From NCBI GenBank assembly GCA_963931925.1, contig OZ007567.1, positions 89,260,998 through 89,324,997 of the forward strand: a DNA stretch of 64,000 nucleotides. The letters run 5' to 3'. The DNA is from Onchidella celtica. Lineage: Eukaryota > Mollusca > Gastropoda > Systellommatophora > Onchidiidae. Below, one piece after another: positions 6,322 through 49,960 of the stretch. The notes beneath the pieces are model-generated. The model made no database searches. It was not told where the DNA came from and saw only the letters and a list, made by a program, of their open reading frames with translations. A program made the position numbers and the translations under genes. How positions within the stretch are numbered: the stretch's first letter is position 1; every line of letters starts with the position of its first letter.

Positions 6322-6475
6322 TCAATATTCAAAGAAATATTCCTTTGTTAGGAGCTCTTGCCTAAAAACTGCCAAGAGATGAGCCTCGTGTGGTGTGAGG
6401 TTCTGAAGGTGCACTCCTTTGTTAGCCAGTATTCCGGTGACATGTAGTATATACTGGGCGTCCGGATAACCATAC
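6322..6475 (-). CDS. Last coding exon: end of DTC and C-terminal tail
   Basis: The exon is 154 nt with acceptor TGACTTCCAG, and it joins the previous phase-2 exon as R-YGYPDAQYILHV. This is the conserved G-Y-P-D-x-x-Y-L end of the Deltex domain. After ILANKGV comes a 27-residue tail ending FFEY and TGA at 6322. The intron before it is 10.4 kb and contains a LINE and several repeats. Clear homology and a matching phase place it in the gene despite the distance. Confidence 0.88.
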
Positions 6476-9400: not shown

Positions 9401-12400
9401 CGATCTAGTTAGTGAAAGATATCTCTGGTTTGTATCAATGGGTGATAGTCAGATTGACCGATCGACGTACTGTCAATGGCCACCGCAAAATGCGGTGGTA
9501 ATTGACGCTACCGGCCAGGCAATATTTTACGTACACAAATTCTGTGTTTTCATAAAAAAAAGACGCCAGAACAGTGCAAACTGCAAACTTGCACTATCGG
9601 CCCAAATAACCCGGAAAGGGCCCAAATATACCTAGCCATTTTATATATATAGTGAATAAGGATGTGCTACCACGGTGTGCCACATGTGAAATAAACTAAA
9701 TGTTGAATATTTTGCATGTCTGAATGTAGAGGTTAATCTGGACTGGCAGGGTATAGACTGGCCTAGCCCAAAGTATACCCTGGGGCATAAACTTGTCTTT
9801 ATGTGCTGACGGTAGCCATGTTTCGATCAAATTACGAGAGAGACAGATTCAAAAGTTAGAGGCAGACGAGTAACAGATTGGCTGCATGTTTGTGACGAGT
9901 GTAGGCATGTGGTCATGAAGCCCGGTGTAGACAAATAGCATACACCGCCCGGCGATCAATTACGATCAAAGACCGTGCTGCCAGTAATAATTGCCTTGCG
10001 AGTTGTGGCCCCACCTGGCCATCTCTTGCTTAGGCCTAGTTTTTTTGTTTGTTTTGTCTTTATGTGCTGACGGTAGCCATGTTTCGATCCAATTACGAGA
10101 GAGACAGATTCAAAAGTTAGAGGCAGACAAGTAACAGATTGGCTGCATGTTTGTGACGAGTGTAGGCATGTGGTCATGAAGCCCGGTGTAGACAAAGAGC
10201 ATACACTGCCCGGCGATCAATTACGATCAAAGACCGTGCTGCGAGTAATAATTGTCTTGCGAGTTGTGGCCCCACCTGGCCATCTCTTGCTTAGGCCTAG
10301 TAATAAGTATGCTTTCTCTCCCCTTTGACCACGTGCTGCGACAGCACACTACGCGCAGCCAGCTCAAAGTGATGACTCATCACTCACTGGGGCAAATGGT
10401 GGGGCTGGCCATGAAGGCTACAACCGTGTAGCTTCGTCAGACACGTGCACTCTCTGATCACTACTTGTGATGTGCGATAATTATTACTCGCAGCACGGTC
10501 TTTGATCCGCGTAAATCACTACCGGTAAATTTTTTGGTTGCGTGGGTGGAGGCATAGTGTGCGGTCAGTAAGAAAACAAAGCTTCTTTGGTATAAGCAAG
10601 ATCTTAAGAGATGATTAGACGGGTGGGCGGGCATAAATTTATTGTGTGCATGGGTGGTGCTAGTAGACAACGCTTGCTAGGCCTACACAAGACATGATTG
10701 GATGGGTGGGCGGGCATAAATTTATTGATTGCGTGGGTAGTGGTGTACAGTGCTGTCACAGCACATGGTCAGGAAGTAGACAACGCTTGCTAGGCCTACA
10801 CAAGACATAATTGGACGGGTGGGCAGGCGGGCAAATGTAAATTTATTGATTGCATGGGTGGTAGTGTAATGCGCTGTCATGACACGTGGTCAGTAAGGAA
10901 ACAAAGCATTGTCGGCCTGAGTGAGAGGTGACTAGCCAGATGGGCGTGCAGTAACAGACAAAGAACAATATATGTCTGACTCGCGACACTCTGAACTGCA
11001 GCCGCTCCCATAATTTGCCGTATGCACTCAGAATTAATTCTCCTGCTATGGCAAGTGTTGTGATTAGCGATTGCCGTTATTCAAGTATTTTAATATATAG
11101 CTTATATAGTAGAAAAAAACGGGATTTAAAATGTTCTTGCTATAGACAAAGTTCTCGTTATTAGCAGTGTCATTAAACATGATGGTCCACTGTATATCTT
11201 GGCCTGTTGCGGCGGGAGGTGTGCTACCGGAAGTGATCCTTGTACCATCATCTGGCTCTGGTGAGCTGACAATGTCAACTGATGATGATGTTCGTCCATC
11301 ACAGGTGATGAAGACCACTGACATCCTTCTATGATGGGTTTGGGACTGGGTGTGTCCGGAGATGGCTGGTGAGTCCGATCTGGTCACGGAAGTGTTTCCC
11401 ACACACTGGGCAGGCGTGGGGGGTGGCTGCAGCTGATGTGCTTGCCGCTCGCTCTTTGCGCTGGCGTCGCTTTCTTTCAGCCTCTGCTGTCCGTTTCTTC
11501 TTGGCTGACTTGGCACCCCTTGCCAGGGCTCCCACTCAACTGAGAAAAAAACATCTGAAATCTATGCGTGGCGCCCATGCGGAGCGTAAATTTTAAATGA
11601 TTGACCATATTCTGCGCATAAATTTGATATAATGGACCATAGATTACACCTACACACAGAAATACACAACAAAATACTTAAATAATTGTAATAAATGGAC
11701 ACCAGAAAAATTACCGCTGATCTCTTCCACCGCGGATTTCCGCGAAAGAGTGGGAGCCCTGCCTTGCTAATCAGTTCACGCCGTCAATGTTGACTGATCT
11801 GGAGAGGGTACTGCCGAGGTATGTGAATTTCTCCACAGGCTGAAGTGTCTGGCCTTTCACTGGATGGAGGATTCAGTGTATGGTTTACCCGGAGCTGGTT
11901 GAAACAGGACTTCCGACTTCTTCGTGCTGATGGTGAGGCCAAAGTTGTCGCACACTTGAGAAAACCTGACCATGCTGTTTTGCATCTCTGGCTCAGAGCC
12001 AGCAATGAGGGCGCAATCGTCAGCAAAAAGAACGTCTCTCAGGACAGTGTCCTTGACCTTGGTGATGGCCTGCAGTCTGCATGGGTTGAACAGCTTCCCA
12101 TCTGTCCTGTACCTGATGTGGAGGCCAGCATCGAAGTCACTGAAGGCATCAGTGATCATGGGAGAGAACATCAGACTGAAGAGTGTGGGCACAAGCACAC
12201 AGCCTTGCTTGACCCAATTGGAAACTGGGAAGGCATCAGAGCAGTCGCCATCGTCAAGTACTCTGGCTGTCATGCCGTAGTGAAATTGTCTGACCATGGT
12301 GATGAATCTGTCAGGAAACCGAACTTTGCCATGATCCTCCAGAGGCCCTCACGGATCACAGTGCCGAAGGCTTTGCTCAGGTCGACGAACATTGAGTTCT

Positions 12401-15400
12401 GCTCCTGGCATTTCTCCTGAAGCTGGCGCGCAGCAAAGATCTGTCAACAGTTCCTCTTCCCTTCCTGAACCCACACTGACTTTCTGGAAGAAGGCCCTGC
12501 TCCAGGTGTGCATTTAACCTGTTTTTAGCAGGACTCTGGCAAGAATTTTCCCAGCAATGGACAGCAAGGATATACCCCTATGGTTGATGCAAGCTTGGCG
12601 GTCTCCTTTCCTCTTGCAGAAGTGAGTGATGGAAGCATCTTTCAGTTCTTGGGGTATCTGGCCTTTCTCCCAGAAGGACTGGAAGAGCTTTGCTAATTTG
12701 CTTGTGGGAGCTGGGCCTCCTGCCTTGCCACTTGACAACTGGTCTATTGCTTTCGTCACTTCCTGTTCCTGGGGTGGAGAGTCCATCTCGTGGTTGATGT
12801 CCACTTGCTCCAGATGACTTGTTGCCTCATTATTTATGGCAGAAGTTCGGTTCAGTAGGGCATCAAATGCTCAGCCCAACTTTCCAGGACTTTCGACTTC
12901 TCGGTGATGAGGGTTGTGCCATTTGCGCTGAGCAGCGGAGAAGTCCCTGTGGACTGGGGGCCATATAGAGTCTTGACAGCGTCAAAGAAGCACTTGGAGT
13001 CATGTCTATCGGCATGGCCTTTAATCTTCTCTGCCTTCTGGCTAAGCCACTTGTCCTGCAGGCTTCTGAGTCCGGCCTGGACAGTCCTGCGGGTGTTTGC
13101 AAATGCTGCTTTCTTGGAAGTGAAAGTTGAGTTGTTCTGAAGCGCCCTGTGTAGCCTATGCTTTTCTTCCAGGAGGGCTTTGATTTCCTCATCGTTCTCA
13201 TCAAATCAGTCCTGGTTTTTCCTGGTTGTAGGACCTCATAGCACAAAGGAAGTGGTGTAAACGTTGTCCCTGACAGCAGCCCAGCCAGCTTCAACATCAA
13301 GACCTGGGGTCACATCAGCCAGACGAGACTGGGGGTCTTGAGCAAGCTTGTCAGCTATAGAGCTGTTTCAGCTTGTTTACATTCAGCCTTTTGGTGATTT
13401 TTGGTCGCCTGTGGTCTTTGTTGAGGGCTGAGTCACGAGTGCTGATGTTGAGCTTGCTGATGATCAGACGATGCCCAGTCCAGCATTCTGCACCACACAT
13501 GGCCTTCATCACTCCCACGTCGCGCCTGTCCCATCTCCTGGTGATGACATAATCAATCAGGTGCCATTGGAGCGGGGACGCATCCAGGACGTTTTATTGC
13601 GGTTTGGAAGGTGAGAGACTGTGTTGGTGATCAGCAGGTCATGCATGGCGCAGGTTTTCAGGAGAAGGAGGCCATTGCTATTGCATTTTCCTACTCCATG
13701 GTGCACTATCACTGCTTCCCAGGCACTGTGATCCTGTCTGACTCTAGCATTGAAGTCCCCAAGAACGAGTAGCTTGCCTGACTTTGGGACAGCTGAGATC
13801 AGGGAGTCCAGTTCTTTGCAGAAGTTGTCTTTGATATCGTCTGGGTTGGACGTGGTGGGACCATATGCGCTGATAAGGGTGAGATCATGGTTACCTCTGA
13901 GAGGCAGTTTCATGGTCATTAGGTGGTCATTGATGCCCTTTGGGAGACTGGCAAGTTTCTGCACGAGGGGAGTCTTGATAGCGAAGCCTACTCCTGCTTC
14001 TTGGCGCTCTTCATGGCTGCGTCCACTCCAGAAGAATGTGTATCCGCCACCTGTTTCTGTTAGCAGGCCTTTATTGGCGAGACAAGTCTTGGACAGTGCA
14101 GTGATGTCAATCCTGTATCTGGCAAGTTCTCTGGCTACCAGGGCTGTTCTATGGTCAGATTTGTCCGAATTTGTGTTGTCGAGCAACGTGTGCACATTCC
14201 ATGATGCAGTGATGAGCGGTGTCATCTTTATTCTTTGATTTTTGTTGCTTCGACTGCAAAGGTGGGACACCCACCAGCCGTGGTAAACTGGCCAGGTTTT
14301 GAAGAAGCAGACAATGTTTAAGGCACCTTTTCAATCCTCTTCCTCTTGCTATGGAGGTGAGCAGTGTGGTCCTAAAGAGGGCTGCTCAATCGCTCAGGGG
14401 GCTGCTGGATTCTGCTGCTGCTTCTGGTTCCCAGCAGAAAACGATCCTATGGCCTGAGTCGCCTGTGTGCAGGTCCGCAGCTACAACTTCCAGTGCATCC
14501 ATACCTGCTGCTTCGTCGCTCGCCCATCGCCACAAGACTTTGAGAAACAGGGGGGTGAATGTCGTGGCTTGTGCTTAATTTGTTTAAAGTGAGGGAGAGT
14601 TGCGCAGGTCGTCAGCCTCGCTCTCTCGTCCCAACCTGTCTTGGTCCAGTGGCAGGACAAAGTTCGGACGACTGGAGATAGGCCGGGATGCAGTGGATGG
14701 TCAGCAGGGTCCTACCGTGTCTCACTGTGCCCAGTTTGCACTCCACAACGCGTTGCTGGGTTCGCCTTCCTGCCTGTTGAACCAGTTGGTGGTTTCGTCC
14801 GCGCAGTCCCCCTGGTCCAGTCTTCACATGTTTGGGGAGCCAAGCCCTGTCTCACCGAGGGTTAACAATGCCAACTATGATAGCTTGGGAGGTGTATAGG
14901 GGCAAATCAGTTGTTTAAAGTTAGAAAACATAGAAAAACCATTCTCTTTTGGAAATTATGTGGGTGATTGCGCTTCAGTCCAGTCAATGGTTGCACTGGG
15001 GTCTAGTGGTTGCAGAAGTGGGTATTGTTGCATGTGGTGTTGTTCTACAATTGAATGTTGGAGTGTGGCTTGGCAGCATTATTATCATTGGATGACCTAC
15101 ATTCACACCAACCAATAACAGTGAGTATGTATTGTATAGAGATAAATCACTTCTGCCAAATCGTGAAACTAGGACGTGGCGGTACAGTGGTCCCACCTAA
15201 TAGCACGATCCTTCTAACAGCACACTCTTTAAAAAAAACGCAATTTTTTCTCCATAAAAGGTCCCCTCTAACAGCATGCTTATTTAAGTACCATTCGCCT
15301 AAGAGCACACTTTTTTCATATCAGAGTGATGAAAATTTTTTACAAACTAGACGAAGTTCCCGGCATTACCCGGGATTAACCTGTGAACCCACCGTACCAT

Positions 15401-21400: not shown

Positions 21401-21752
21401 TGCCAACCCCTGAACTCGGCCTAGCAGAATACTGTTCACGCAAGCGCGATCGACTTCTGTCCAGTGCCTATGACTTTATCTCATGACATGAGTATGTAAA
21501 ACCAAACAACTTCCCCGTTTGACTTGAAAAATTCTTGCAGTTTTGTAGATGAACGGGTTATTTTAAAATCCCTTGAGTACAGTTCTGTTCACGATACGAT
21601 GTACTTGGCTGTAGATGGATAGCAAAGAAACTGATATTTCAACGCGGATGACCGGACCTTTCTCAATCCCAGATTTTTGCGTATCCGCGGAACTCTGACA
21701 GCCCTGATATTTTGCAATTAGGACAATTAGCTGATGATAGTGGGTTTATCGG

Positions 21753-21787
<35 letters not shown>

Positions 21788-30700: not shown

Positions 30701-33700
30701 TTAGAGTTTTTTTTTTTGGTTTGGATATATACCCCTATTGTCTTTTGTTTTGTTATTAATATTGATGTAAACTATGGCCTGACCGGCCTGACATATATAC
30801 GCTCTAGTTATTTAATACTTTTCTTGTGTGGTTGTGTCCGAGTGTGAGTTAGCTGCCTCTCGTGCAGTCGTAACATCCCCAAGACCCTAACTCTGCTCGT
30901 GACAATAACCATCTGCCAATCCAATAAACACTAACAATGCCTAACTCAAAAAAAAAAAAGAACAAGTCATAAATGCCACTGACCTATTGGACATTGTACA
31001 AAAGGCAAAATATGGCCTTTTCTCATTTCTTTTTTTTGTTGCCATGTTTCAACCATGCCTAATTAATTTATTACATTGCAGAATAATTGAATTACAAATA
31101 ATTTTTGTATTTTTTTTCTATTGGTGCTTCTGAACCTGTTGACAATTTAAGAGTTACTGATATTTTTATTAACGGAATAAAAAAAGAACTTGAGAAAATT
31201 TATTCCACCACATAGAATGCTGCAATTATAAAATGGAAAAGTGCTATTACCTGACTGTACAATCTGATTTCTGGTTAAATTAAATGACATTTTAAACACA
31301 ACTTGTTCAGCTAACTTCTCTGTCTTTCAAGGATGAATTATGAATGAGAGCTTAAAAGAATTTAAGAGGAAATCTGCTGGATTCAGAACTCACTTTTGCG
31401 TTAAACTAATTAATTGTAAACTTTTATATCATCAAGTCAAACAAGCTGAGAATAATGATTCAGCTGCAACAGAATACTACAGTAATATGAAATGGAAAAG
31501 TGCAAATGCCTGACTATGTTTGTCAAATTTTGACATTTCAAGCACCAACCAGAGATGCCAACCCACGAAAATTAAAAAGAGTAATCTCAGACACCAAAAA
31601 GAGTATTTTCACACCAAAAAGAGCATTCTAGGTTCACAATAATGTTCGGTTTTGAACCAGTTTCGCCTTAATCTCTCGCATCAAAGAGTAAACAAAATAA
31701 GGTCTGAAGTTCATTTTTCGCACAATCGGGCGAAGCATCATGTTGTTCGTACCAGGGCTACATCGCATTTATATCCACTCGCTTCCGGCCTGGGCAGACA
31801 AAGACCGGAACTTCCTTCGTCAAATTCGCACTTCGCATCAAGATCTCATCATGGATTTCATAGTTTGCTGGCCTGACAATGAAAAAACGTATTTCCGTCA
31901 AAAGTCATATTATATGCGCGTATTTTGGTGCAAAATCGTACTCAAGTACGTGAAATCGTACTAGTTAGCATCTCTGCACCAACTTGTCCAGCCCACTTCT
32001 CTGTCTTAAATTCATGAGTCTTGAATGAAAGCGCAAAACAACTTGAAAGCAAATAAGCCACTCATACCAGTTACAAACTGGCATTTGCACTTAAATAATA
32101 CATTTTTTTTTTCAGCGTCTGAAATCTCCTGCACATGATGTTGTGGGTGGAGGGGTCTGAGTAAAATTAAAATTGTCTATTTGATCCATGTATTTGCTGC
32201 AAACATGGCAGCTAGTGAAATTTGTATTTTTCTGGTTTTTTTCTGAAATAAGTTTTAATTCACACTTAAAAACAACGGCCATGAAATGATACATAAAAAT
32301 CAGCAGTACTGTAAGTTAAAGGATGCACTTTCAGCCAATTCGATGCCACAGGGAAGATGAGGAAAAATAAGATATTTGACCAATACAGTTCCACAGGAAA
32401 ACTATAACCATTTCCTTACTAATAAACCCAGCTCCAAATTGCTTTGTTTACAATTTCAATTTAAAAGTATAATTCTTACCTCTCTGTACTACACCTGAAT
32501 ACTTTTCATCTCTGCTGTGCCCAGAGGTGTGCAAAGACGATGCTGATGATCTGTTGGCACCTGCATATCCTCCTTTTTCTGTGACAGACACATATTAAAT
32601 TAATTGAAGTCTCAATATTGCAACTAATATACTTTCAGAAGATATCTGCAGCTAAAGGCATTCTGTAACACTTCTCAGTGCATGTCTAGAGCTGGGGATT
32701 ATATGAATTACAAAATAATTTTCTCATTTTTTGCCACATCTGAATAATGCCTAGCCAAATTATCATGTTAAAGAAGTACAAACCATCCCAACTTCCTCCA
32801 TCAAAGCCTATTCTTGTTGATTAATTCCATTGTTACCGATATCTTTTTATGTACAGAATAAAAATTAAGATGAGAAAAAATATTCAGCCACAACAAATTA
32901 CACAACAACAAGTAATGGAGAAATTCAAATGCCTGACTTTATTGCCAATTTCTAATTGAAGATTGAATATTAATGTTTTAATACAAATTTGTCCCTCTCA
33001 TTTTTTGCCGAAGATTTTGTTTGAGTTCTCTTATGTGACATTAAACTAAAAGTAACATGTAAATGTCAGAACTTTGCTTTCCTTGCAAGCTTTAGCTCCA
33101 GATTCCTTGCATGTGAATTTCTTCATCAGCTGAAGTGCAACAAAAGACAGGACAAGCAAGCGAGGCCTAAACTTCAAGCAATATGTGATGAAATATTTAA
33201 ATAATGTACTAACTCACCGCTGGGTGTAGCTTTCCTAACTTTCTGGACATCACCTAGAGACTCGAAGACTCTCTGAATGCAGGGTAAAGCATCCTCTTCA
33301 GCAGTGATAGTAACAGTCTTCAAATTATGTCCTTTTGACAGTTTGGACAGCCATCCATGTAATCCATCTGTGAAACTGCCCACCAATTTCTGGTCTATTG
33401 AGTTCTGACACTCTGCAAGTATTAACAATTCATTATCTGATAAGCTCATACATTGACTAAAATATTAGAAAAATCAAACATTTTACTTGTAAAATGCCAA
33501 ATCAGTGCTTTATGATTGACAGGTAGGGTTCTTTGCCTGACCATTTAAATTTTATAGCTGGGTAACAGTCACTGATATGTTCTGAAGAAATGTTCCAAAT
33601 GCAGACTCAATGAAAACAATCACTGAAATCCAGCTGAAGACTCTTTAGCCTACCATTAACCCTATTAATATTTTGCGCTAATTAAATCACAACAAATAGA

Positions 33701-36700
33701 GGCACACTCAATGAAAACGGTCTTCCCAAACCATACATCAAATTAGACTTTATATAATAACAAATGAAAAAGACTACCATAGACAGATAAAAAAATCCAT
33801 GGCCAGGTACAGCAATTCCCTTTTGACAGTGAGTTGGAGTTTTGGGTTTAATGGCGCATTGGTACGATAATGGTCACTTTGTGTCTTTCCCCCGTTTTTC
33901 CTTTGACAAAGTAATAATGTTAGGTTAAAGCCATAAGCCAGCAATTATTGAATCAGCACAAGATCAAGCTGGATCAAAATGCACGATGAGTAATGAGAAC
34001 ATGCCATTCCTTTTTTGAAGAATACAGAAATGCTATTTGTGAATAATTATGAAACAGTATCAGTGTGGAATGAGCATAATTATGGTCTCATGCAAATTTA
34101 CAAAAAATAACAAGATTTTCAACTACAAAACGTTTTCTCTGCGAGGCATTTTCTGGTAGTTCTGAGCAAGGAAGCTTGAATCAAAGAACATGCATCATGG
34201 TGCTCAACAGTAAACAGCTGTGTAAATTATGTCAGCTGTACATGTCAAATCAGATGATTTGAATGTTCACCAGTGAATGAGAATAAATAAAACCCCTGCT
34301 TGCCCATGATAAACATTGGCGTTTTTCATAATCCCTCTTGAATTGTGTCAAATCATGTCTTTGAAATACCAGTCTGATAACAATTGGAACTTGACCATTA
34401 CTCCCTATTATCATATTTCTATCTATGTATGTGGATGCATTAATATATGTATATGTGGACTTTGGAGAGAACTAGAGAAGTTTCATTCAATATTTAAAAT
34501 GTCACTTCCCATGACCTTAACGAACAGATAAAGAATTTCATTTATCTTTATCATAATTCCACTTTTGCACATTGGTACAGAACAAAAATACACAGTATAT
34601 AAGGAAGCGGTATTACAGAACCAGACCATATAAGATAAGACGTCTGCCAGAAATCATCAAATTGGAATCAGTAATTTCACATAAAATTTATGGGATGCCT
34701 TAAGGATGGTGAAAGATAGACACTTTTCTGACTATCAGGTCGGCAAACTAAAATAAACATTTACCACTGATCTCTTCAGAAAACTGGGGTATCTGCCTCA
34801 CCCTCCTCCCGATATGAACCCGAGCTCATTTATAAACAAAAGAAAAGAATATGTCTGCCAAAATTAATCCATCCCTCTTTTAAAAAGACCACTTTTGCAA
34901 CTGCAAATATCTCCTGAATAAATAAGTTTTCGGATTTAAAAAAAACAAAAAACCTAAAAGCAGAGGAAGTGAAGAACTGTATTCACATCTAATGAAAAAC
35001 TGTGGTGTCACGCATGTGTCTTGATATTGACCACCCAAAGTGAATAAATCTATAAGTTCAAGTGCATACTTACCATAAAGGATTTCACTAGTTACAATCA
35101 ATGACTCTGCAGAGTTAAGGGCAATTTCATTGTGGTAGAATTCAGACAATCTTTCAAAGGCCTCTTGCAGTTTTGAAGAATCTTTGTCTTTTAAGTAAAC
35201 TGTGCATACTTTGCGGGATGCTTTACCATCTGGTTTTGAGAGATGCAAAAACTGAAACTGATACCTGTGTTCTGTAATAATTTTAGCGTTGTCACATGGC
35301 ACAAAGTGCTGAATGCCACTCAGTCTCTTGAAAAGCTTGCCAATAGTTATCACAAAATCTGCCTTCAAGTCCATCGCAGGTCTTCTTGAGGTCAGAATTT
35401 GAATACGTCCAATCTGGTAGCATTCAGAATACAGTGTTTGCCTTTCTGATGCCACTGTCTTTACATCTTTGACACTTTTTTTGCTACTGGTCTCATCTTG
35501 CTTCCCAGGGTTCTGAGAAGAAAGGGAAGGAGTTTCTTTTCTAGGAAGCTGCTTCACAAAAACTTCTTCAGCAAATTCAAAATCCTTTTCTTTTGTGGCA
35601 GTGTGACACACACATGGGTATGGCCAATTTTTGTTGAAATGGTCTTTGATTTTCCACACCATGGTTTCATTCACATCTACAAAAAGAATTTTGCGCAAAG
35701 AACACCTGTTTCTTCTCTTCCACTCATCAAAGTGTTTAACGGCCTCCATGTAACTGGCAGCACATATCTCAGGTGGCACCTTAAAAATTGCTGAAACATG
35801 AAAGAGATAATGTCAAAAAGTTTTATTTGTTGTGAAAAATGCCTATAAGTGTACGCAGCCTCAAGTACACCTTGTGCACCAAATCTCTTCTTTTTTCTTT
35901 CTATTCTCATGACATTTGGTATTAAATAATTTTCTGTTCACCTTTCAGGTATATGTATACAACTGTTTTGTATGAACAAATGTTTTTAGGGTCATTTTTC
36001 AAGCCTGGAAAACTGTCACTACTACTGAGTACTACAAATTTAAAATAATGCAAACATTTCTTTTGGTCCTGGTAATATTTTCATGAAATTTCCACTTCCA
36101 TCACTTTTTTAATGGATCACAAAATCAAGTCTGTTCCATCAGCCTGTTTTGACTTCACCTGCTGCCTGTATTTTATTACTAAATTTTGTACTAAGAAATC
36201 ATACAGTTATTATGGAACTAGAGGGTGAACATGTAACCAAAAGAATGTCCTGAATATGTGACCAAAAAGTATGAAATTTTGTGCACTACCTTAATTTTTT
36301 ATGACAAATTATGTGGGCATATCTATATGGGAAAACCTGAGTGTTTAATGTTGTGTTTATTATGGTCTTTTGAGCCACAAAAGGGAGACACATTTATTTT
36401 GCATAACTTTGAAAAGTATGATAGTGATAGGAAATTTTGTTCTTTGCCTCTATTTATCGACCTACTGCGTGTCGAAAATCAACTCTATCGCATCCAAACG
36501 TTTATTCTGCAAGTAATTGTGAAGTAACAATAAGTTCTAATAGCTTTTGCACTGAATCCTGGTGCCTTTATTTATGTGACAAAGATTTATGTAGCATCTG
36601 CGGGCTACCCCTTACCCTTCTCCGTTTTGCTCGTCATGCTTCTTTTTTCCTTTTGTTGTTGGCGTTTGGCCGGCATGTGCTCAGTGACCTTGCCTTCCCT

Positions 36701-39700
36701 TTATTGTGAGTGGTTTTTTCCTCGCTCGGTTGTTGTTGGGTGGTTTGGCCTTTTTTGTGAATGTTATTGGTGTGTTCCTGGGCGTTCGATGTCGCCGTGG
36801 ATGTGGATGTTTGCGCCGGGTTTGGCCTTGGGTGATGTGGCCTGGTGACGTGTTGAAACGTGGTTGGTTGGTTTGTGTGTTTCGGGCGAGGGCGGAGGTT
36901 GGATTGGTTTCGGGAGCTTTCTGCAGGGGTATCTGTGTGTGTGGGCCCATGTGGGTGGTAAAGGTGGGTGAGTAAGTGAGTTTCCAGCACTTGTGCGTTT
37001 CCTAGTGTGGCATAGGATATTTAGTTGTCAGGTGTTCTCTGGTGCCTTCCTAGTATTTTGTTGTTCAGTATACAGTTATTAAACTTTAGTATTATTTAAT
37101 CGATTGTCGGATCTCATGTTTACTCTTTCTACAGTTGTAATAGTTTCATTTTCTAAAGGGTTGTAGTCAGATCAACTAACTCCCCCCTACTATAACGTGC
37201 TGACAATATGGTTGGGCTTGGTACAAAGAATTTGTAAGATTTATCTTGTTTGGGACATGTGGTATATTTAATAGACGAAGCTGTTGCATAGGATATCAAG
37301 GTCTGCACTTCTTTTGAGTAGTATAAGTTGAATGGACACAGATGAACTGTGGGTGACACTACAGCTTAGTATTAGAAAAAATGGGGCAAAAAAATAATAA
37401 CACAATTTCCTATGTTGGTCACATACATGTATTGTTTTATGAATATGAATGAAAGTACAAACATCTCAAAGTTACTTGATTTCTAATATTCAAATTAGTC
37501 TGATAAAAAGCTCAAGGCCAACACTCTCGCATATCTCTACTAAATCTAAAATCAACATGTGGTAGGTGCTACAGTTGATGGGAACTGATAATAGTGTTAA
37601 AAGTGAGTTAAGGAGCAGGGGTCTATGAATTATCTGAATGAATCAGCCTTTTTCTCTGCCCTCACATATTTCCTTTTCATTAACAACTCTTTAGGTCTGT
37701 ATAAAGACAAAGCCAAATTGGTGGTGAGCTGCAAACTGCTGGATTCCTTCACTCAAACTGTGCCATTATATTGTCATATTTTTTTACAAATCACAGCACA
37801 TGAAATGATTGCTTTTTAGAAGTTGAAATGTTTAACTCTTTGCGTGCCACAAATTTTTCCATTTCCTGAAACATGAAGAAAATAGAGGTGGAGATGCATG
37901 AAGACTAACTACACCAATATTTATGAATAGAAAGTTGATTTTCTTTCTTCCCGACACCCAATAGTCAAGCAATCTTGTGGACTAATACATCGGTGACTGG
38001 CACAAATGCGACCAGCAGAAGAACAGATTCATCTGCTATTGACATGCAAAGAATTAAGTTGTATACCATATAGCATGAATTATTTATGTGACACTTACTT
38101 CGTGAAGATAAAGATGTTGAACAAAAGTATTTGCATAAATCTCATAATATGGCTGTCATAATATTATTTTCAAAACCCTTGCAAGGCCAAGCAACTGGCT
38201 TGGACTGACTATAAGTCTGCCCCAAGGGCAAAAATTCTTTTCAGAAGGCATTGACACAGAATCTGTCGTATAATTACCGGTAAGTTAATAAGTTTAGTTG
38301 GGTGAGAATATCAGTCTCTTACCTGCACTGATGGAGGGCAAAGCCAGTGTAGATGCATCCAGTTTGACTGCTTCAATAAGACATCGTAAAACTGTCCGTC
38401 TCAAATCATGTTCACACCTCTCTTTGTCAGTGTAGTAATTCCAGTTAGGCCCAACAGCATGTAGCACATGCTTAGCTGACAGATGTCCCCCAGAGGACAC
38501 AAATACTCCAGTTACATCAACTTTGTTTCCATCACCAATGAATCTCTTGCAATCTTCTTGAAGCTGATGTCCAGCAGCTACCGCAATGGCCTTTGCAACA
38601 CCACCACCATGATGTAGACTTCTGTTTGCTGCATTCACAATTGCATCTACATGGAGCTCAGTGATGTCTCCCTGACAGATAGAAATCTCAAGATCGCTGT
38701 ATTGACCTTTGAAACTTCCTTGTGCAACATCTATACCTTGTGTTGAAAGGACACCAGTAGAAAAAGCATGCTGTCCAATTCTCTCTTGAGAAGTTCTTAT
38801 GGCTGCTTTTGTTTCTTTGTTCTTGCCAGGCATATCATATCTTTCTTGTTTGGTTGTTACCGATGCAGACCCCATACTTTCTTTAGCAGACCAGAGTGTG
38901 GTTTTATCTTGATTTCCAAGCAAATCAGTGATCATTTCTTTAATACGTTTTGCATCCTTCTTGTCCTTGCTTACAATATGTATTTTATTTGCAGAAACAG
39001 AAAACTGTTTGGGACAATTTTCCTTTAGTTTTTTCAAGAGCTGATCCAAAGATGCATCTTTATCTTCTTGAAAAGCCACTTGTTCAAATTTCAGGCTCTG
39101 AAAGTCACTGAGCATTTTCATTCCTTGCGCAGATCTTTTATTCACTTTCAGTGTGACATGCTCAGTTTCATACTCGATGTCATCCACTAGCTCTTGGAAA
39201 TTGTGATAACGTAAGTACTGCCTGGCAAGTTCAAAACGTTCCTTCCTTAAGCAAAGTCCATGAGAAATATCTTCTTCTGATTCAGAGTTTCTCCTTAAGT
39301 TCTCCATCATGACCTTTCTCCATTCATTTGATTTGGCATATCCTTTATGCTCTATCTCTTTGTTTTCTTGAGTGAATTTTTGCTGCCCATTTTGATTTAA
39401 TTGATACCGATATGTACTTCTATCAGACTCTCCGCCTTTCTCTTTAGAGATTGCATTGTTGTCATGATAATTGGTCCATCCTTTGTTTTCTTCCTTCACT
39501 GCTTTTTGTGTTTTAGTCCTTTGTATGTCTGATGGTGACTGTCGTAAAATTGGTCCATGACCTACGGTGCATTCGGTATTGTTTTTTTCATCCTCACTGT
39601 CATTATCTCTCCTCCTGGCACTGAAATGTTCATGTTTCTCAGGTTTTGCTTGCTCCTGATTCTTCTCAACACCAGTGGAATAAGATTTCATTTCCTTTTC

Positions 39701-40828
39701 TTTGTTTGGAGTTTCACCCTGACTGGTTCTCAGTAGGGCCACATTTCCTATTTGCATGGCAGATGACTTTCCTCCGGTCTTGCTTAAATGATTGGGAAGA
39801 GCACTGTGTGCCGTTTTCATTTCACTCTTTTCATATACAGATGAGTGTTCGTCAAATATTTGTGGCTTTGGTGATGGTGCATCTTTCCACTGTGTATCAT
39901 TATTACATATATGTGTCTGCCTTGCATCAGTTATCTCATTTTCAGTCTGTGCTTTATGGCCACTTATGTATTTTGCCTGTGTTGGGTCATATACTTTACT
40001 GTGTGTTTCTGTCTGAGTTTCATCATATTGTTCATCATCACTAGCAGTATCGTCGGGAAACTCATGAACCTTTTCGCTTTCTGAAATGTCCACCCCTGTT
40101 TTCTTACGGTCTTTGTCTATCAAGCCTGTGTGCGTCATTTTTGAGTTTGAGATTTTGTCCAATCCCCCTCCTGCATCATCTGCAGTGATGGTGCTCAGTA
40201 AACTTTCTTTTGGATCTCCAGCAGTCTGTTGTCCGACTCCATCAGCACATGAGACACACAATTCACTGTCATCTGATTTCTTTGTGTTACAGTCTTCCTG
40301 ATTTTCATTCTTGTCAGTGGAAATTTCTTCTTCCTTGACCACATAAAAGCTATCTAAACTATGTGCACCACTCAAGTCTTCTGTAAGATCTGTGTCCCTG
40401 CTATTACTCTCAAGACTGGTCTTTTTATTGGGGGCATTATCTGCCCTTTGTTGTGAATGCAGCTCTACTGTAATAGATGACTTGTTACAAGACTCAGTAC
40501 TCAAAGCTGTTGGCATTTTTTCTGCATTTGTAAAAGCTGTATTCTTCCCACCAGCAGCATTGTTTCTCTTATCTTGATTGCTGAAGTTATCTCCTTGATT
40601 CAAATTTTCCCCAACTGCATTTATCACAGTAAAACCACTGACTTCTACAGCCGCCTGATAAGTACTAAGAAAATTAGCAAGTTCCACAATATTTTGCTGT
40701 GTTACTGAATCCCCTTCAATGACTAGTGACACATCCCTTGACATCTTGAATCCAAGCTTCATTACAGTGTCATACAGCTCTTGACTTTTAGGTATTTCAT
40801 CACTGAGTGTCAAATGACAGTGTTTGAA
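6322..40828 (-). CDS. Macro-domain / RING / Deltex-C (DTC) protein, nine exons, 5' end missing
   Basis: Spliced gene of 4,311 coding nt (1,436 codons plus stop): exons 40828-38323, 35790-35074, 33412-33218, 32578-32480, 28416-28342, 27632-27549, 23151-22871, 17067-16868 and 6475-6322. All introns are GT-AG and the phases agree (1,1,1,1,1,1,0,2). Counting from the first codon of the 40828 exon: acidic, disordered-looking region about 80-540; KH-like segment about 550-665; macro domain about 713-885; low-complexity linker 1140-1225; RING-like cysteines C1237 to C1272; DTC about 1283-1420. From family knowledge, macro domains bind ADP-ribose, RING recruits an E2, and DTC binds NAD+/ADP-ribose and couples it to ubiquitin. 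The closest functional parallel is the PARP9-DTX3L pair, fused here into one chain. The first exon ends phase 0 at an acceptor, so at least one 5' exon is missing. Alternatives: a DTX3L- or PARP14-like relative. The gene model is strong; function is inferred. Confidence 0.88.
6820..7053. mobile_element. Piggybac-like terminus fragment (TTAACCCTCG...)
   Basis: It starts with TTAA followed by CCCTCGTCTCACG and GC-rich sequence, like the other TTAA-flanked elements here. A matching right end was not found before the next TTAA at 7054, where another element begins. Probably one end of a disrupted element. Confidence 0.4.
7054..7793 (+). mobile_element. Piggybac-like non-autonomous element, family A
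   Basis: It begins TTAACCCTATACTGGCC. Nearly the whole length from about 7100 matches the reverse complement of 44472-43824 plus 54877-54850, a second copy in the other orientation. It has no transposase. A TTAA near 7790 may be the right edge, but the right terminal repeat is not clear. Confidence 0.5.
8125..8400 (+). repeat. SINE-like interspersed repeat
   Basis: An ATAATAATAATAC start is followed by ATAGCATTTATATAGTGC and CTAAGCGCTTTACAGC, a motif pair I recall from short interspersed repeats of marine animals. A segment with AGAGAGGCAGAGAATTCC follows. The class is from memory and I cannot define its ends. Confidence 0.4.
9472..9506. other. Strong DNA/RNA hairpin
   Basis: GTCAAT and CCACCGC pair with GCGGTGG and ATTGAC across an AAAAT loop, with a 2-nt mismatch in the stem. 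It sits in the 6.5-16.9 kb intron. No function is assigned; it may be part of a decayed inverted-repeat element. Confidence 0.5.
9793..10301. repeat. Direct tandem duplication, two 248-bp copies
   Basis: Positions 9793-10040 and 10054-10301 are near identical (period 261 bp), separated by a T-rich 13-bp spacer. A further 32-bp piece of the unit (GATCAAAGACCGTGCTGCG...) reappears inverted at about 10477-10508. There is no coding potential. This is a recent local duplication within an intron. Confidence 0.85.
10505..10950. repeat. Minisatellite with GGGTGGGCGGGC core
   Basis: About four units of variable length share GACGGGTGGGCGGGCATA followed by AAATTTATTG (starts of the latter at 10635, 10718 and 10839; spacings 83 and 121 bp). 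The interleaved GCTGTCACAGCAC and GACAACGCTTGCTAGGCC are also repeated. The G-rich core could form quadruplexes. Confidence 0.75.
11329..11535 (-). pseudogene. LINE C-terminal zinc finger
   Basis: It has a basic Lys/Arg/Ala-rich stretch and then ACPVCGKHFRDQIGLTSHLR and TH, a single C2H2 finger of the kind found after RT in some LINEs. It is in a different frame from the RT piece at 11857. A few degenerate codons and AT-rich sequence follow to about 11060. Confidence 0.75.
11857..12804 (-). pseudogene. LINE reverse transcriptase domain, frame-broken
   Basis: The upstream piece (12804-12514) has KAIDQLSSGKAGGPAPTSK and INHRGISLLSIAGKILARVL, the first RT motifs. The downstream piece (12297-11857) has NWVKQGCVLVPTLFSLMFS and the catalytic FADDCALIA (Y/F-A-D-D). 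Sequence between them is frameshifted. It reads on into a linker with ISTKKSEV, typical of LINE RT. Non-functional. Confidence 0.87.
13557..14270 (-). pseudogene. LINE APE-type endonuclease domain
   Basis: The 237-codon open stretch contains ITASWNVHTLLDN, YRIDITALSKTCLANKG, GGGYTFFWSGRS, VGFAIKTPL, TLISAYGPTT, LLVLGDFNARV and TSWMRPRS. These are the exonuclease-endonuclease-phosphatase motifs of LINE ORF2, including the D-x-N core (GDFNAR). The glutamate normally at S-E-T is Lys here (LSKTCL), a likely inactivating change. The SDH motif region falls after the frame break at 13557. Confidence 0.88.
15185..16388. mobile_element. Pogo/Tigger-like non-autonomous element
   Basis: The termini are CAGTGGTCCCACCTAATAG and the complement of CAGTGGTCACCGCG, both followed by a shared AGCACG motif. 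TA flanks both ends (15183-15184 and 16389-16390). Inside, the motif AACAGCAC/TAAGAGCAC recurs near each end. No transposase is readable in the 1.2 kb. Confidence 0.75.
16868..17067 (-). CDS. Exon: middle of the DTC domain
   Basis: The exon is 200 nt, phase 0 in and phase 2 out, with acceptor GTGGATCAG and a perfect donor GTAAGT. It encodes DPYLGCAYAGTRQTAYLP, RRLVFRMSLS and VTMWNGIPHKT. These match the Deltex signature (x-Y-x-G-x-x-R-x-A-Y-L-P, R-R-L-I-F and W-N-x-I-H-H-K-T). The first His of HHKT is Pro here. The acceptor pyrimidine tract is weak, so the 5' edge is slightly less certain than the rest. Confidence 0.85.
17186..17698. mobile_element. Pogo/Tigger-like MITE, copy 2
   Basis: This 513-bp element begins CAGTCGAGCA and ends TGCTCGACTG, flanked by TA. 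It is the same family as 3114-4026 (shared TAGTTTGAGTTTGCCGAATT left and AAATAAATTTGGGACT right) with a 400-bp shorter middle. It contains a G run (about 17404-17417). Confidence 0.82.
17700..20001. other. Intron sequence, no feature recognised
   Basis: This is part of the 17067-22871 intron. Short inverted sequence (GATTATG ... CATAATC) occurs near 19260-19300. No open frame with a domain and no clear element ends were found. Confidence 0.5.
20002..21054. mobile_element. TTAA-flanked inverted-repeat element (piggyBac/Kolobok-like MITE)
   Basis: TTAA followed by GTAGGTAGTCCAAATTG at the left matches the complement of CAGTTTGGACCATCTAC before TTAA at the right. It is 1,053 bp with no transposase. 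The TTAA target and short TIR fit piggyBac or Kolobok superfamilies; the assignment is inferred from the ends alone. Confidence 0.6.
21754..21785 (+). repeat. G32 homopolymer
   Basis: An uninterrupted run of 32 G in the intron upstream of the DTC middle exon. A run this long is prone to slippage and quadruplex formation, and its length may be a sequencing artefact. Confidence 0.85.
22871..23151 (-). CDS. Exon: RING-like domain and first part of DTC
   Basis: The exon is 281 nt with acceptor TTTTTTTTTCAG and donor GTAAGA, phase 1 in and 0 out. The cysteine pattern C-x2-C-x10-C-C-x4-C-x2-C-x8-C-x2-C (SCAACK ... PCCKLPICDIC ... GICSVCG) is a compact RING without the usual central His. QPDGYMTVRKLS and GYEGVGVWEIQYS then match the start of the Deltex C-terminal domain, where family members read Q-P-x-G-x-M and G-Y-x-G-x-G. 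The domain breaks off at CQGGWLK and resumes in the next exon 5.8 kb away. Frame reading past 22871 to the stop at 22817 is intron. Confidence 0.88.
23631..23680. repeat. Perfect 50-bp palindrome
   Basis: TGTACAAATGTACA, then a (TA)n core, then the exact complement TGTACATTTGTACA. It is perfectly self-complementary over 50 bp and could extrude a cruciform. It lies 480 bp 5' of the RING exon. Confidence 0.9.
23994..24015 (+). repeat. C22 homopolymer
   Basis: A run of 22 C in an intron, next to pyrimidine-rich sequence. It interrupts a short meaningless open frame (polyproline). Possible length artefact. Confidence 0.85.
25166..25944 (+). mobile_element. Piggybac-like non-autonomous element, family B, intact copy
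   Basis: It starts TTAACCCTCACCCTGCGCG and ends GCGCGGGGTATGGGTTAA: TTAA at both sides with GC-rich inverted termini. The 779-bp body is collinear with 44473-44840 plus 54446-54849, so it gives the empty-site sequence for the insertion at 44842-54445. No transposase. Confidence 0.8.
25945..27548. other. Intron sequence, no feature recognised
   Basis: AT-rich intron. An open frame at 26070-26408 shows no domain and no splice signals. Nothing supported. Confidence 0.5.
27549..27632 (-). CDS. Small symmetric exon, Gly/Pro/Arg-rich linker
   Basis: The exon is 84 nt with acceptor GATATCACAG and donor GTAACT, phase 1 to phase 1. It encodes EPGAYPADYRRPHSPGEA and then a Gly/Asn/Thr-rich end. It starts with the same E-P/K pattern as its two neighbours. 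It is the third member of the apparent array of small linker exons. Confidence 0.75.
28342..28416 (-). CDS. Small symmetric exon, basic/Ser-rich linker
   Basis: The exon is 75 nt with a polypyrimidine-rich acceptor (TATAAAAAAAACAG) and donor GTAATC, phase 1 to phase 1. It encodes EPNQNASKRPSSHSRATG and a few more residues. The intron sequence next to its acceptor resembles that beside the 32578 exon, which suggests exon duplication. It has no domain of its own. Confidence 0.72.
28740..29531 (-). pseudogene. Second LINE reverse-transcriptase fragment
   Basis: The open stretch 29531-29133 reads EEVETAVKKMKQGKVTGSDNIP, TALPKTPGA, ELHRTISLMGHFTKILLRLL and LRPELSKTQFGL, the first RT blocks of a LINE. 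The reading continues in broken frames to about 28740 with FIDYCKAFDKV and GVRQGCVMSPDLFNLY on the minus strand. No endonuclease or YADD block is present. It is of a different family from the element at 11-15 kb and in an intron of the host gene. Confidence 0.82.
29811..30936. other. Insertion-like segment with TGTTAG/CTAACA ends
   Basis: The segment interrupts intron sequence that is otherwise related to neighbouring intron copies. It starts TGTTAG and ends CTAACA, an LTR-like terminus, but I see no target duplication, no second copy and no coding sequence. It could be a solo LTR. Confidence 0.25.
31550..31975. mobile_element. hAT-type MITE with perfect 8-bp target duplication
   Basis: The ends are CAGAGATGCCAAC and the complement of AGAGATGCTAAC. 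The flanks are GCACCAAC at 31542-31549 and GCACCAAC at 31976-31983, an exact 8-bp duplication typical of hAT. It is 426 bp long with no transposase. It interrupts one of the duplicated intron blocks, so it is younger than the duplication. Confidence 0.88.
32480..32578 (-). CDS. Small symmetric exon, Ser/Gly/Arg-rich linker
   Basis: The exon is 99 nt with acceptor TCTGTCACAG and donor GTAAGA, phase 1 to phase 1. It begins EKGGYAGANRSSAS, is low in hydrophobic residues and is probably disordered. Because it is symmetric it could be skipped without breaking the frame. It resembles the two small exons downstream in composition and in its first residues. Confidence 0.75.
33218..33412 (-). CDS. Exon: short folded segment (65 codons)
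   Basis: The exon is 195 nt with acceptor CTTGCAG and donor GTGAGT, phase 1 to phase 1. It encodes ECQNSIDQKLVGSFTDG and continues through LKTVTITAEEDALPCI. The helix/strand alternation suggests it completes the fold begun in the previous exon. No family is recognised. It is placed in the gene by matching phase, strand and position. Confidence 0.8.
35074..35790 (-). CDS. Exon: end of macro domain plus an unclassified region
   Basis: The exon is 717 nt, phase 1 in and phase 1 out. The acceptor TTTCAG precedes CAATTTTTAAGGTGCC; joined to the previous exon it gives SAAIFKVPPEICA, the end of the second macro loop, followed by the usual last helix and strand (YMEAVKHFDEW and LRKILFVDV). The remaining ~190 residues (from about YPCVCHTATKEK) are not recognised. 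A stretch reading RIQILTSRRPAMDLKADFV has the hydrophobic pattern of a macro first strand but no GGG loop follows, so a degenerate second macro fold is only a possibility. The donor is GTAAGT after SEILY. Confidence 0.87.
36437..37010 (+). other. Strongly T/G-skewed intron segment
   Basis: From about 36600 the plus strand is dominated by T and G (GGTTGTTGTTGGGTGGTTTG and similar). This opens several overlapping frames on both strands; the minus-strand frame reads as Thr/His/Pro/Asn-rich low complexity. There is no domain and no splice site linking it to the gene. I treat the frames as compositional. Confidence 0.6.
38323..40828 (-). CDS. Exon: acidic region, KH-like segment and most of the macro domain
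   Basis: This is the largest exon (2,506 nt). Its acceptor is TTTCTTTCAG just before 40828, and reading begins FKHCHLTLSDE. There is no ATG at the start, so it is not the first exon. Residues about 80-540 are rich in Asp, Glu, Lys, Ser, Asn and Gln. A helical KH-like stretch (RKERFELARQYLRYHN onward) follows. The macro domain opens with LEISICQGDITELHVDAIVN, then AANRSLHHGGGVAKAI and HAVGPNW. GDIT, NAAN and GGGVA are the ADP-ribose contacts expected of the family. The exon stops inside the second macro loop at SISA with donor GTAAGA, so the frame continuing to 38294 is intron read-through. Confidence 0.9.
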
Positions 40829-49836: not shown

Positions 49837-49960
49837 CTGAGTTTGCTGTGGCTATCTCGTATCCATCAAAGATGTGCTCCAGCCTGCGGACCCATCTAGG
49901 CCATCGAACTGCGGCACCTTCAGTGTGGCAATCGAATTGTTCATACGGTGGGAGATTCAT
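49829..49960 (-). pseudogene. Gag remnant of the gypsy element
   Basis: A 43-codon frame from ATG at 49960 beginning MNLPPYEQFDCHTEG and containing RWPRWVRRLEHIF, the usual start of an invertebrate gypsy gag. It ends at TAG (49831-49829) just as pol begins. The capsid part, normally 200 or more residues, is absent, so gag was deleted internally and fused close to the zinc-knuckle region. Confidence 0.75.

What the first reader, a model, noticed from the sequence alone, without database searches (positions are those of the whole stretch)
6322..40828. Macro domain, RING and Deltex-C on one polypeptide: a natural PARP9-DTX3L-like fusion
Nine exons with consistent GT-AG sites and phases encode a macro domain with GDIT/NAAN/GGGVA, a cysteine-rich RING and a full DTC ending in GYPD. 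In vertebrates ADP-ribose reading (PARP9 macro) and RING-DTC ubiquitin ligation (DTX3L) are on two proteins that must dimerise. Here both are on one chain, without a PARP catalytic domain in the visible part. It would be a self-contained ADP-ribose reader and ubiquitin ligase, possibly in DNA damage or antiviral defence. Domain calls rest on visible motifs; the role is inference.
Basis: partly seen in the sequence, partly recalled or inferred. Interest (0 to 1): 0.88.

Follow-up and report, generated by a model that had tools for sequence, protein, structure and literature searches.

The report
Macro–RING–Deltex gene, altered active site
A gene, probably from a snail or sea-slug relative, makes one protein that carries both an ADP-ribose-handling domain and a Deltex-type ubiquitin-ligase end; that combination turns out to be widespread in invertebrates, but in this copy the ligase end has lost the two residues thought to do its special chemistry.

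Summary
A minus-strand gene (40828-6322; seven exons, 1,402 codons plus stop) joins a macrodomain (Pfam 2.6e-28) to an eight-cysteine RING-like finger and a full Deltex C-terminal domain (DTC, 2.5e-26). It is not a lone fusion: 72 other proteins held here match both, from sponge to amphioxus and many molluscs; heterobranch gastropods are closest. Macro1 groups with other macro-DTC proteins (93/93), apart from PARP9 and PARP14, so "PARP9-DTX3L fusion" fits as layout, not as history. The proposed mechanism is weakened. On 64 common rows macro1 keeps 26 of 26 conserved columns, RING-DTC 48 of 60. The residues needed to ubiquitylate ADP-ribose (DTX2 His582, Glu608) are Pro and Ile. Pro plus Ile/Val pairs recur in an anemone, a loris and the coelacanth; the tree needs four origins, but those three records are weak or were found with a biased query. 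Most likely an ADP-ribose-directed hydrolase or scaffold whose ligase end no longer makes ADP-ribosyl-ubiquitin. No activity was measured.

The parts
38323..40828 (-). Exon 1 of the model (first coding exon upstream not found): N-terminal segment, long low-complexity region, KH-like region (about 39241-38915), and most of macrodomain 1 (from about 38707)
   Evidence: CAG acceptor and GTAAGA donor; macro Pfam 4.2e-26 on the open frame; seven relatives match at 40828 or 40831 and others run 39289-38321; KH-like is inferred from secondary structure in the AlphaFold model of relative P0015, no Pfam match
35074..35790 (-). Exon 2: end of macrodomain 1 (loop 2 SISAAIF spans the junction) and start of a second, degenerate macro-like domain (from about 35449, inferred)
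   Evidence: Splice phase 1 joins in frame; spliced Macro Pfam 2.6e-28; tblastn matches from 35794 to as far as 35039
33218..33412 (-). Exon 3: end of the second macro-like domain
   Evidence: Internal acceptor CTTGCAG before 33412 restores frame; five of 18 relatives match between 33407 and 33204
27549..27704 (-). Exon 4 (uncertain): linker, phase 1 to 1, may be skipped
   Evidence: Acceptor, donor and frame only; no match among 18 relatives
22871..23151 (-). Exon 5: eight-cysteine RING-like finger (23119-23012) and start of DTC
   Evidence: 7 of 7 conserved Cys columns plus the CC pair; DTC start, Pfam 0.0089 on this exon alone; tblastn matches
16868..17067 (-). Exon 6: middle of DTC, including WNGIPHKT; the Pro at the His582 position is codon CCT at 16896-16894
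6322..6475 (-). Exon 7: end of DTC (YGYPD ... VTGIL) and stop codon TGA; the Ile at the Glu608 position is codon ATA at 6432-6430
11857..14330 (-). Remains of a non-LTR-type retrotransposon inside the last intron; not part of the protein
   Evidence: RVT_1 3e-09 (11857-12348) and endonuclease 2.9e-09 (13557-14330) on separate open frames; the frame between them, 12514-12870, had no match

Best explanation
This is a heterobranch-gastropod member of a widespread animal family of macro-RING-DTC proteins (DTX3L-like Deltex proteins with macrodomains in front). Shown: one gene whose frame carries a conserved macrodomain 1, a region conserved in relatives, an eight-Cys RING-like finger and a DTC. 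Inferred: the KH-like region and the degenerate second macrodomain; macrodomain 1 binds ADP-ribosylated targets and can remove or hold the mark; the DTC keeps its fold but cannot activate the ADP-ribose 3' hydroxyl, so the protein does not make ADP-ribosyl-ubiquitin. It then works either as a plain, weak RING ligase brought to ADP-ribosylated targets by the macrodomain, or as a non-catalytic competitor or adaptor beside intact paralogues. I lean to the second.
For: Homology to macro-DTC proteins of heterobranch gastropods: P0001 E 6.7e-112, P0003 covering 99% of query residues 560-1414; tblastn matches at six of the seven exons. Clade of 11 heterobranch rows including the window, 99* and 100/99; window with Bradybaena P0002 100/92, and P0002 also lacks the His (Ser). 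Macro1 keeps 30 of 31 columns conserved in >=80% of 154 segments and has the loop 1 Asn/Gly and loop 2 hydrophobic-aromatic pattern that PMC10221186 links to hydrolase activity (passages). RING-DTC keeps 48 of 70 columns conserved in >=85% of 145 rows, third lowest; the two lower rows are P0115 (gap-rich) and P0083 (2 of 7 RING Cys columns). On 64 rows common to both domains at one threshold (85%): macro1 26 of 26, RING-DTC 48 of 60 with 2 rows lower. His582 and Glu608 equivalents are Pro and Ile; in PMC7615817 section 9 all tested substitutions of either impaired Ub-NAD+ formation. End branch 0.61 in the macro tree, 2.14 in the RING-DTC tree, median 0.54 in both. Macro minus RING-DTC identity: mean 15.8 points for 14 window pairs, 4.5 for 91 other pairs. 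Bradybaena has consecutive gene names 01970 (P0005, His/Glu kept) and 01971 (P0002, Ser/Glu).
Against: No activity, expression or transcript data. The eight RING cysteines and the DTC fold signal remain, so ligase function is not excluded. The gene could be slowly decaying; no close relative was available for a selection test. Some other pairs show as large a gap between the two domains (up to 20.2 points, P0002-P0005), so uneven change is not unique to the window. Second macro-like domain: profile comparison failed (probability under 2%); support is only from a relative's model. The macro1 tree does not repeat the Bradybaena pairing (window beside Biomphalaria at 54/63).
Confidence: 0.6

Rival explanations
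1. It is a working ADP-ribose-directed ubiquitin ligase: macro1 reads ADP-ribose, RING-DTC ubiquitylates the target or the mark, with the changed pocket still active.
For: RING cysteines kept, DTC Pfam 2.5e-26; 132 of 154 aligned rows, cut rows included, keep His and Glu.
Against: Both catalytic residues and the HPNPGK and FTVG stretches are changed; the tested substitutions of either catalytic residue impair the reaction in DTX2 (PMC7615817 section 9).
Confidence: 0.12
2. Ordinary decaying paralogue: after duplication the RING-DTC end is under little constraint and the gene is on the way to a pseudogene.
For: 22 of 70 conserved RING-DTC positions changed, long branch; mobile-element frames in and around the gene.
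Against: 4.2 kb open frame with GT-AG sites; macro1 keeps 30 of 31 conserved columns.
Confidence: 0.22
3. Two neighbouring genes, a macro gene and a Deltex gene, wrongly joined in the model.
For: Neighbour joins may occur in automatic models: P0022 and P0024 are mammalian PARP14-like records with a DTC, and PARP9, DTX3L and PARP14 are expressed from one human locus (PMC13224862, passages).
Against: Same strand, compatible phases, and the same joined protein annotated in many species; P0190 is named as a complete open frame on an assembled component (749 aa, macro+RING+DTC); ten listed macro-DTC proteins of 812-1105 aa sit on contigs of 3.0-4.3 kb, too short for long introns (P0025, P0160, P0186, P0191, P0196, P0197, P0201, P0202, P0214, P0234; what these contigs are was not checked).
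Confidence: 0.05

Closest known systems
Heterobranch macro-DTC proteins P0001-P0012 (Biomphalaria, Lymnaea, Bulinus, Bradybaena, Elysia, Plakobranchus; records named DTX3, DTX3L, hypothetical or uncharacterized)
   Same: Order of parts; SISAAIF loop 2 in the four printed (P0001, P0002, P0006, P0009); CC-type RING in all 12; N-terminus in seven of the 18 relatives searched
   Different: Of 12 rows, 11 keep His at the 582 position and all 12 keep Glu or Asp at 608; P0002 has Ser/Glu; none has Pro/Ile
Vertebrate DTX3L
   Same: RING-DTC; best solved relative of the DTC is human DTX3L, 3pg6, 3e-17
   Different: DTX3L-named vertebrate rows list no macrodomain; His/Glu present in human DTX3L; the DTX3L KH Pfam model matched amphioxus P0027 but not this gene
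PARP9 (macro1-macro2-inactive ART, PMC13224862)
   Same: Macro1 match 1.2e-27 to 9qyd; possible tandem macro layout in the relative's model
   Different: No ART domain found; macro1 falls outside the PARP9 clade
PARP14 macrodomain 1
   Same: Best solved match of macro1, 3vfq 4.4e-39 and 3q6z 1.8e-29; hydrolase loop motifs
   Different: No WWE or ART match here; separate clade in the macro1 tree
Latimeria chalumnae DTC protein P0238/P0239
   Same: Pro and Val at the catalytic pair, Asp in place of the HPNPGK His, FKI in place of FTV
   Different: No macro domain listed; lists PARP14-type RRM and DTX3L KH accessions; placed apart from the window on the tree, on a long branch

Membership tests
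Deltex (DTC) family | Full-length DTC domain at the C-terminus | tested here: met
   Pfam PF18102 2.5e-26, 92.9 bits against cutoff 25, positions 3-133 of 133
Deltex (DTC) family | RING finger directly before the DTC | tested here: inconclusive
   7 of 7 conserved Cys columns plus the CC pair; no Pfam RING match above cutoff
ADP-ribose-ubiquitylating Deltex ligase (activity class) | Catalytic His582 and Glu608 of DTX2 | tested here: not met
   Pro and Ile; so it is not filed as such an enzyme, only as a divergent DTC protein by descent. No call prints DTX2 numbers on the sequence; the mapping rests on the 26-residue spacing of the first His of HHKT and the Glu, which equals 608 minus 582
Hydrolytic macrodomain (PARP9/PARP14 MD1 type) | Loop 1 Asn/Gly and loop 2 hydrophobic plus aromatic residues | tested here: met
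   NAANRSLHHGGGVA and SISAAIF; criteria from PMC10221186 (passages)
Hydrolytic macrodomain (PARP9/PARP14 MD1 type) | Measured hydrolase or binding activity | not testable with these tools
   no assay
PARP9 | ART (PARP) domain after the macrodomains | tested here: not met
   No PARP match in the gene pieces; heterobranch relatives P0001-P0012 list none
PARP9 | Macro1 inside the PARP9 clade | tested here: not met
   PARP9 rows form their own clade 100/99; macro-DTC rows one side of another branch 93/93
PARP9 | Second macrodomain | tested here: inconclusive
   Profile comparison negative; model of relative P0015 aligns to PARP14 MD1-MD2 over 333 residues, model 595-1012, rmsd 16.8, which may reflect domain orientation or misfit
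DTX3L | RING-DTC closest to DTX3L among Deltex proteins | tested here: inconclusive
   Best PDB match DTX3L; vertebrate DTX3L lies inside the macro-DTC rows in the best tree, but one clade of macro-DTC rows is not rejected, p 0.111; only DTX1 and DTX2 were outgroups, DTX3 and DTX4 were not included

The most novel reading that the evidence does not exclude
Animals repeatedly remodel the Deltex DTC into a second, non-catalytic state in which Pro and an aliphatic residue replace the His/Glu pair while the fold is kept, as a pseudo-ligase that reads or competes for the same marks; the window gene is one such case, tied to an intact hydrolase-type macrodomain. In addition, macro plus RING-DTC on one chain may be the ancestral DTX3L layout that vertebrates split into PARP9 and DTX3L.
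Probability: 0.25. Interest if true: 0.72.

Novelty: new variant of a known kind. Interest (0 to 1): 0.5.

Why it matters
ADP-ribose and ubiquitin signalling meet in the PARP9-DTX3L-PARP14 system. A one-chain invertebrate layout found from sponge to amphioxus gives an outgroup for asking how the vertebrate arrangement arose. Natural DTC domains without the His/Glu pair, described as strictly conserved among DTX proteins in PMC7615817 (section 9), offer a ready test of which Deltex functions need ADP-ribose ubiquitylation at all.

Tried and rejected
Direct join of exon 2 to the first AG of exon 3 (33456) was out of frame and was replaced by the internal acceptor. One search was run before this fix, with a query 14 residues longer (1,416 against 1,402).

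The first tree (quick) placed vertebrate DTX3L inside macro-DTC rows, but the test found a better tree with macro-DTC rows held together (p 0.696). The careful tree again nests vertebrates and 0% of 200 bootstrap trees join the macro-DTC rows, yet one clade is not rejected (p 0.111). I therefore do not claim that vertebrate DTX3L lost its macrodomains.

The second macro-like domain was not supported by profile comparison (probabilities 0.2, 1.5, 0.6 and control 0.2). The structure model supports it only in a relative.

The link of His-to-Pro with Glu-to-aliphatic (4 of 5 Pro lineages, 0 of 8 other His-loss lineages, Fisher 0.007) is fragile. It was noticed after looking, the lineages were counted by eye, P0238/9 was found with the window's own DTC as query, P0115 is a gap-rich row (36% of columns filled) and P0024 a record marked low quality. 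Without P0238/9 p is 0.018, without all three p is 0.20. The tree used to count origins kept the two catalytic columns, and its bootstrap had not settled.

Rows dropped: one search left out P0133, P0136, P0078 and P0014 (cut or misaligned DTC) and three human references. Of the 72 macro-DTC proteins, P0014 lists only Macro, and P0022 and P0024 may be joined neighbours. Trees used 69 of 152 DTC rows, 68 of 154 macro segments and 47 of 154 DTC rows, chosen by me for spread. Protein searches list only the best 120 of 211 and of 814 matches. Searches use different rows and thresholds for the two domains; one search repeats the comparison on 64 common rows and gives the same contrast.

The genome search was asked the same question four times and not answered, so the window's own genome was not searched for intact paralogues. 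No search for the missing first exon was made beyond tblastn. One search for the gene symbol carried by P0239 found no paper; a search for inactive DTC reports listed 10 of 12 papers, none opened for this.

Full report
The gene. On the minus strand a seven-exon model from 40828 to 6322 reads 1,402 codons and a stop without interruption. Its internal boundaries are GT-AG. The first-stage junctions 38323/35790 and 22871/17067 are exact. Eighteen relatives aligned to the window by tblastn match exons 1, 2, 3, 5, 6 and 7; exon 4 has no match. The start at 40828 is an acceptor: Lymnaea P0006 begins MSEKM before the matching FK, so one small exon upstream is missing. Of four intron frames scanned, two match retrotransposon domains (RVT_1 and endonuclease, both in the last intron) and two match nothing. 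I saw no second copy of this gene in the window (E up to 1).

The parts. Spliced, the macrodomain scores 2.6e-28 and the DTC 2.5e-26 over nearly its whole profile. The best solved relatives are PARP14 macrodomain 1 (3vfq, 3q6z), then PARP9 macrodomain 1 (9qyd) for the macrodomain, and DTX3L (3pg6), DTX2 and DTX1 for the DTC. The RING has eight cysteines, with CC where most rows have C-x-H. The 12 heterobranch relatives P0001-P0012 share this, as do amphioxus P0216 and hemichordate P0044. Between macro1 and the RING is a region conserved in heterobranchs. Profile comparison did not identify it, but a model of relative P0015 (mean pLDDT 60 overall; 10-residue block means of 54-92 from residue 841 on) aligns with PARP14 macrodomains 1 and 2 in tandem (rank 1 by Foldseek; 333 residues, model 595-1012, rmsd 16.8). 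I call it a degenerate second macrodomain, as inference. In front of macro1 the same model shows strand-helix patterns at 361-480 that I read as KH-like (recalled fold, no match tested).

How common it is. A search with the window protein gave 211 matches, 120 listed; the best 13 all list both Macro and DTC. A search with the RING-DTC of Haliotis P0020 gave 814, 120 listed. In the 237 proteins then held, 72 match both by phmmer; two of these are mammalian PARP14-like records that may be joined neighbours, and P0014 lists only Macro. They include sponge (Oscarella P0225), corals and anemones, Lingula, Asterias, Antedon, Glandiceps, amphioxus and many molluscs. Amphioxus P0027 carries the DTX3L KH domain, Macro, RING and DTC on one record. 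Lingula P0128 adds a PARP domain and has two DTC and two macro stretches; whether that is one gene was not checked. So the layout is not new to the databases. I saw no paper that describes it in searches for DTX3L or Deltex with macrodomain, macro domain, ancestor, mollusc, sponge, oyster, amphioxus, gastropod, cnidarian or metazoa. Those listings were capped (20 of 67, 15 of 73, 3 of 3, 15 of 522, 1 of 1, 12 of 29), I opened only passages or sections of eight papers, and the library holds open-licence papers only, so this does not show that it is unpublished. A domain re-annotation of the PARP family that several papers cite did not appear among the five of 20 papers listed and was not read.

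History. In the macro1 tree macro-DTC proteins lie on one side of a branch (93/93, 94% of bootstrap trees), apart from vertebrate PARP9 (100/99) and PARP14 (99/93). PARP9 is thought to come from a duplication of PARP14 in vertebrates, and PARP9 and DTX3L together resemble PARP14 in domains (PMC13224862, passages). The window protein is therefore unlikely to be a product of joining PARP9 to DTX3L. Whether vertebrate DTX3L once had macrodomains stays open.

What changed here. Of 152 aligned rows (148 relatives, the window, three human references) the His582 position is His in 138 and a gap in 2; the Glu608 position is Glu in 140, Asp in 4 and a gap in 3. In the window they are Pro (codon CCT) and Ile (ATA). 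HPNPGK reads PYLGC and FTVG reads FRM. RING-DTC keeps 48 of 70 conserved columns, macro1 30 of 31; on 64 common rows and one threshold, 48 of 60 against 26 of 26. Identity gaps between the two domains average 15.8 points for 14 window pairs and 4.5 for 91 others, though single other pairs reach 20.2. PMC7615817 (section 9 read in full; discussion passage) reports that His582 contacts ADP-ribose, that both residues are strictly conserved among DTX proteins and that all substitutions tested impaired the reaction.

A repeated change. P0115 (anemone, gap-rich) has Pro/Ile; P0024 (Nycticebus, low-quality record) and P0238/P0239 (Latimeria) have Pro/Val. On a 47-row tree this needs four changes, and well supported branches force at least three. 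Three of the four lineages are long branches there. The Latimeria record also shares a changed HPNPGK His and FTVG. This could be a kept second state of the DTC or common decay; the numbers do not decide it.

Mechanism. Shown: sequence and layout. From known families: macrodomains of this type can hydrolyse mono-ADP-ribose, and PMC10221186 gives the loop criteria and reports activity of a coral PARP14 macro1 (passages). Inferred: target choice by macro1, no ADP-ribose ubiquitylation by the DTC, possible regulation of intact paralogues. An Aplysia study lists a transcript named DTX3L in a module with interferon-response and antiviral orthologues (PMC8195618, passages); that transcript was not compared with this gene, so it is only a lead.

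Species. Nearest relatives are heterobranch gastropods, 53-58% identical in macro1 and 33-43% in RING-DTC over ten rows, so a heterobranch gastropod is likely; that is inference.

Verdict. The unusual part is the altered catalytic pair beside a well-kept macrodomain.

Noticed in passing
window 46414-49851 (-) and 57104-57928 (-): A long open retrotransposon pol frame (protease, RT, RNase H, integrase; RVT_1 2.3e-25) and a separate integrase piece, both upstream of the gene; Gypsy-type by recall.
   Followed up: partly
window 4399-5241 (+) and 51105-52874 (+): A THAP-domain frame (3.1e-08) downstream of the gene, and a frame with TNP-like transposase domains upstream; P-element-like by recall.
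   Followed up: partly
window 9793-10301: A 261-base unit repeated twice at 97% match inside the last intron.
   Followed up: no
protein P0128 (Lingula anatina): One record with an RRM, two macro, two RING and two DTC stretches and a PARP domain: either a remarkable all-in-one protein or a joined gene model.
   Followed up: no
proteins P0138, P0180, P0182 (Ptychodera) and P0021, P0129, P0139, P0181 (Haliotis, Dendronephthya): DTC proteins whose listed domains include PF00643 (B-box, name recalled), a TRIM-like mix with Deltex.
   Followed up: no
proteins P0002, P0005, P0023 (Bradybaena 01971, 01970, 01974): Near-consecutive gene names suggest a local array of macro-DTC and macro-only genes, with intact and altered catalytic residues side by side.
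   Followed up: partly
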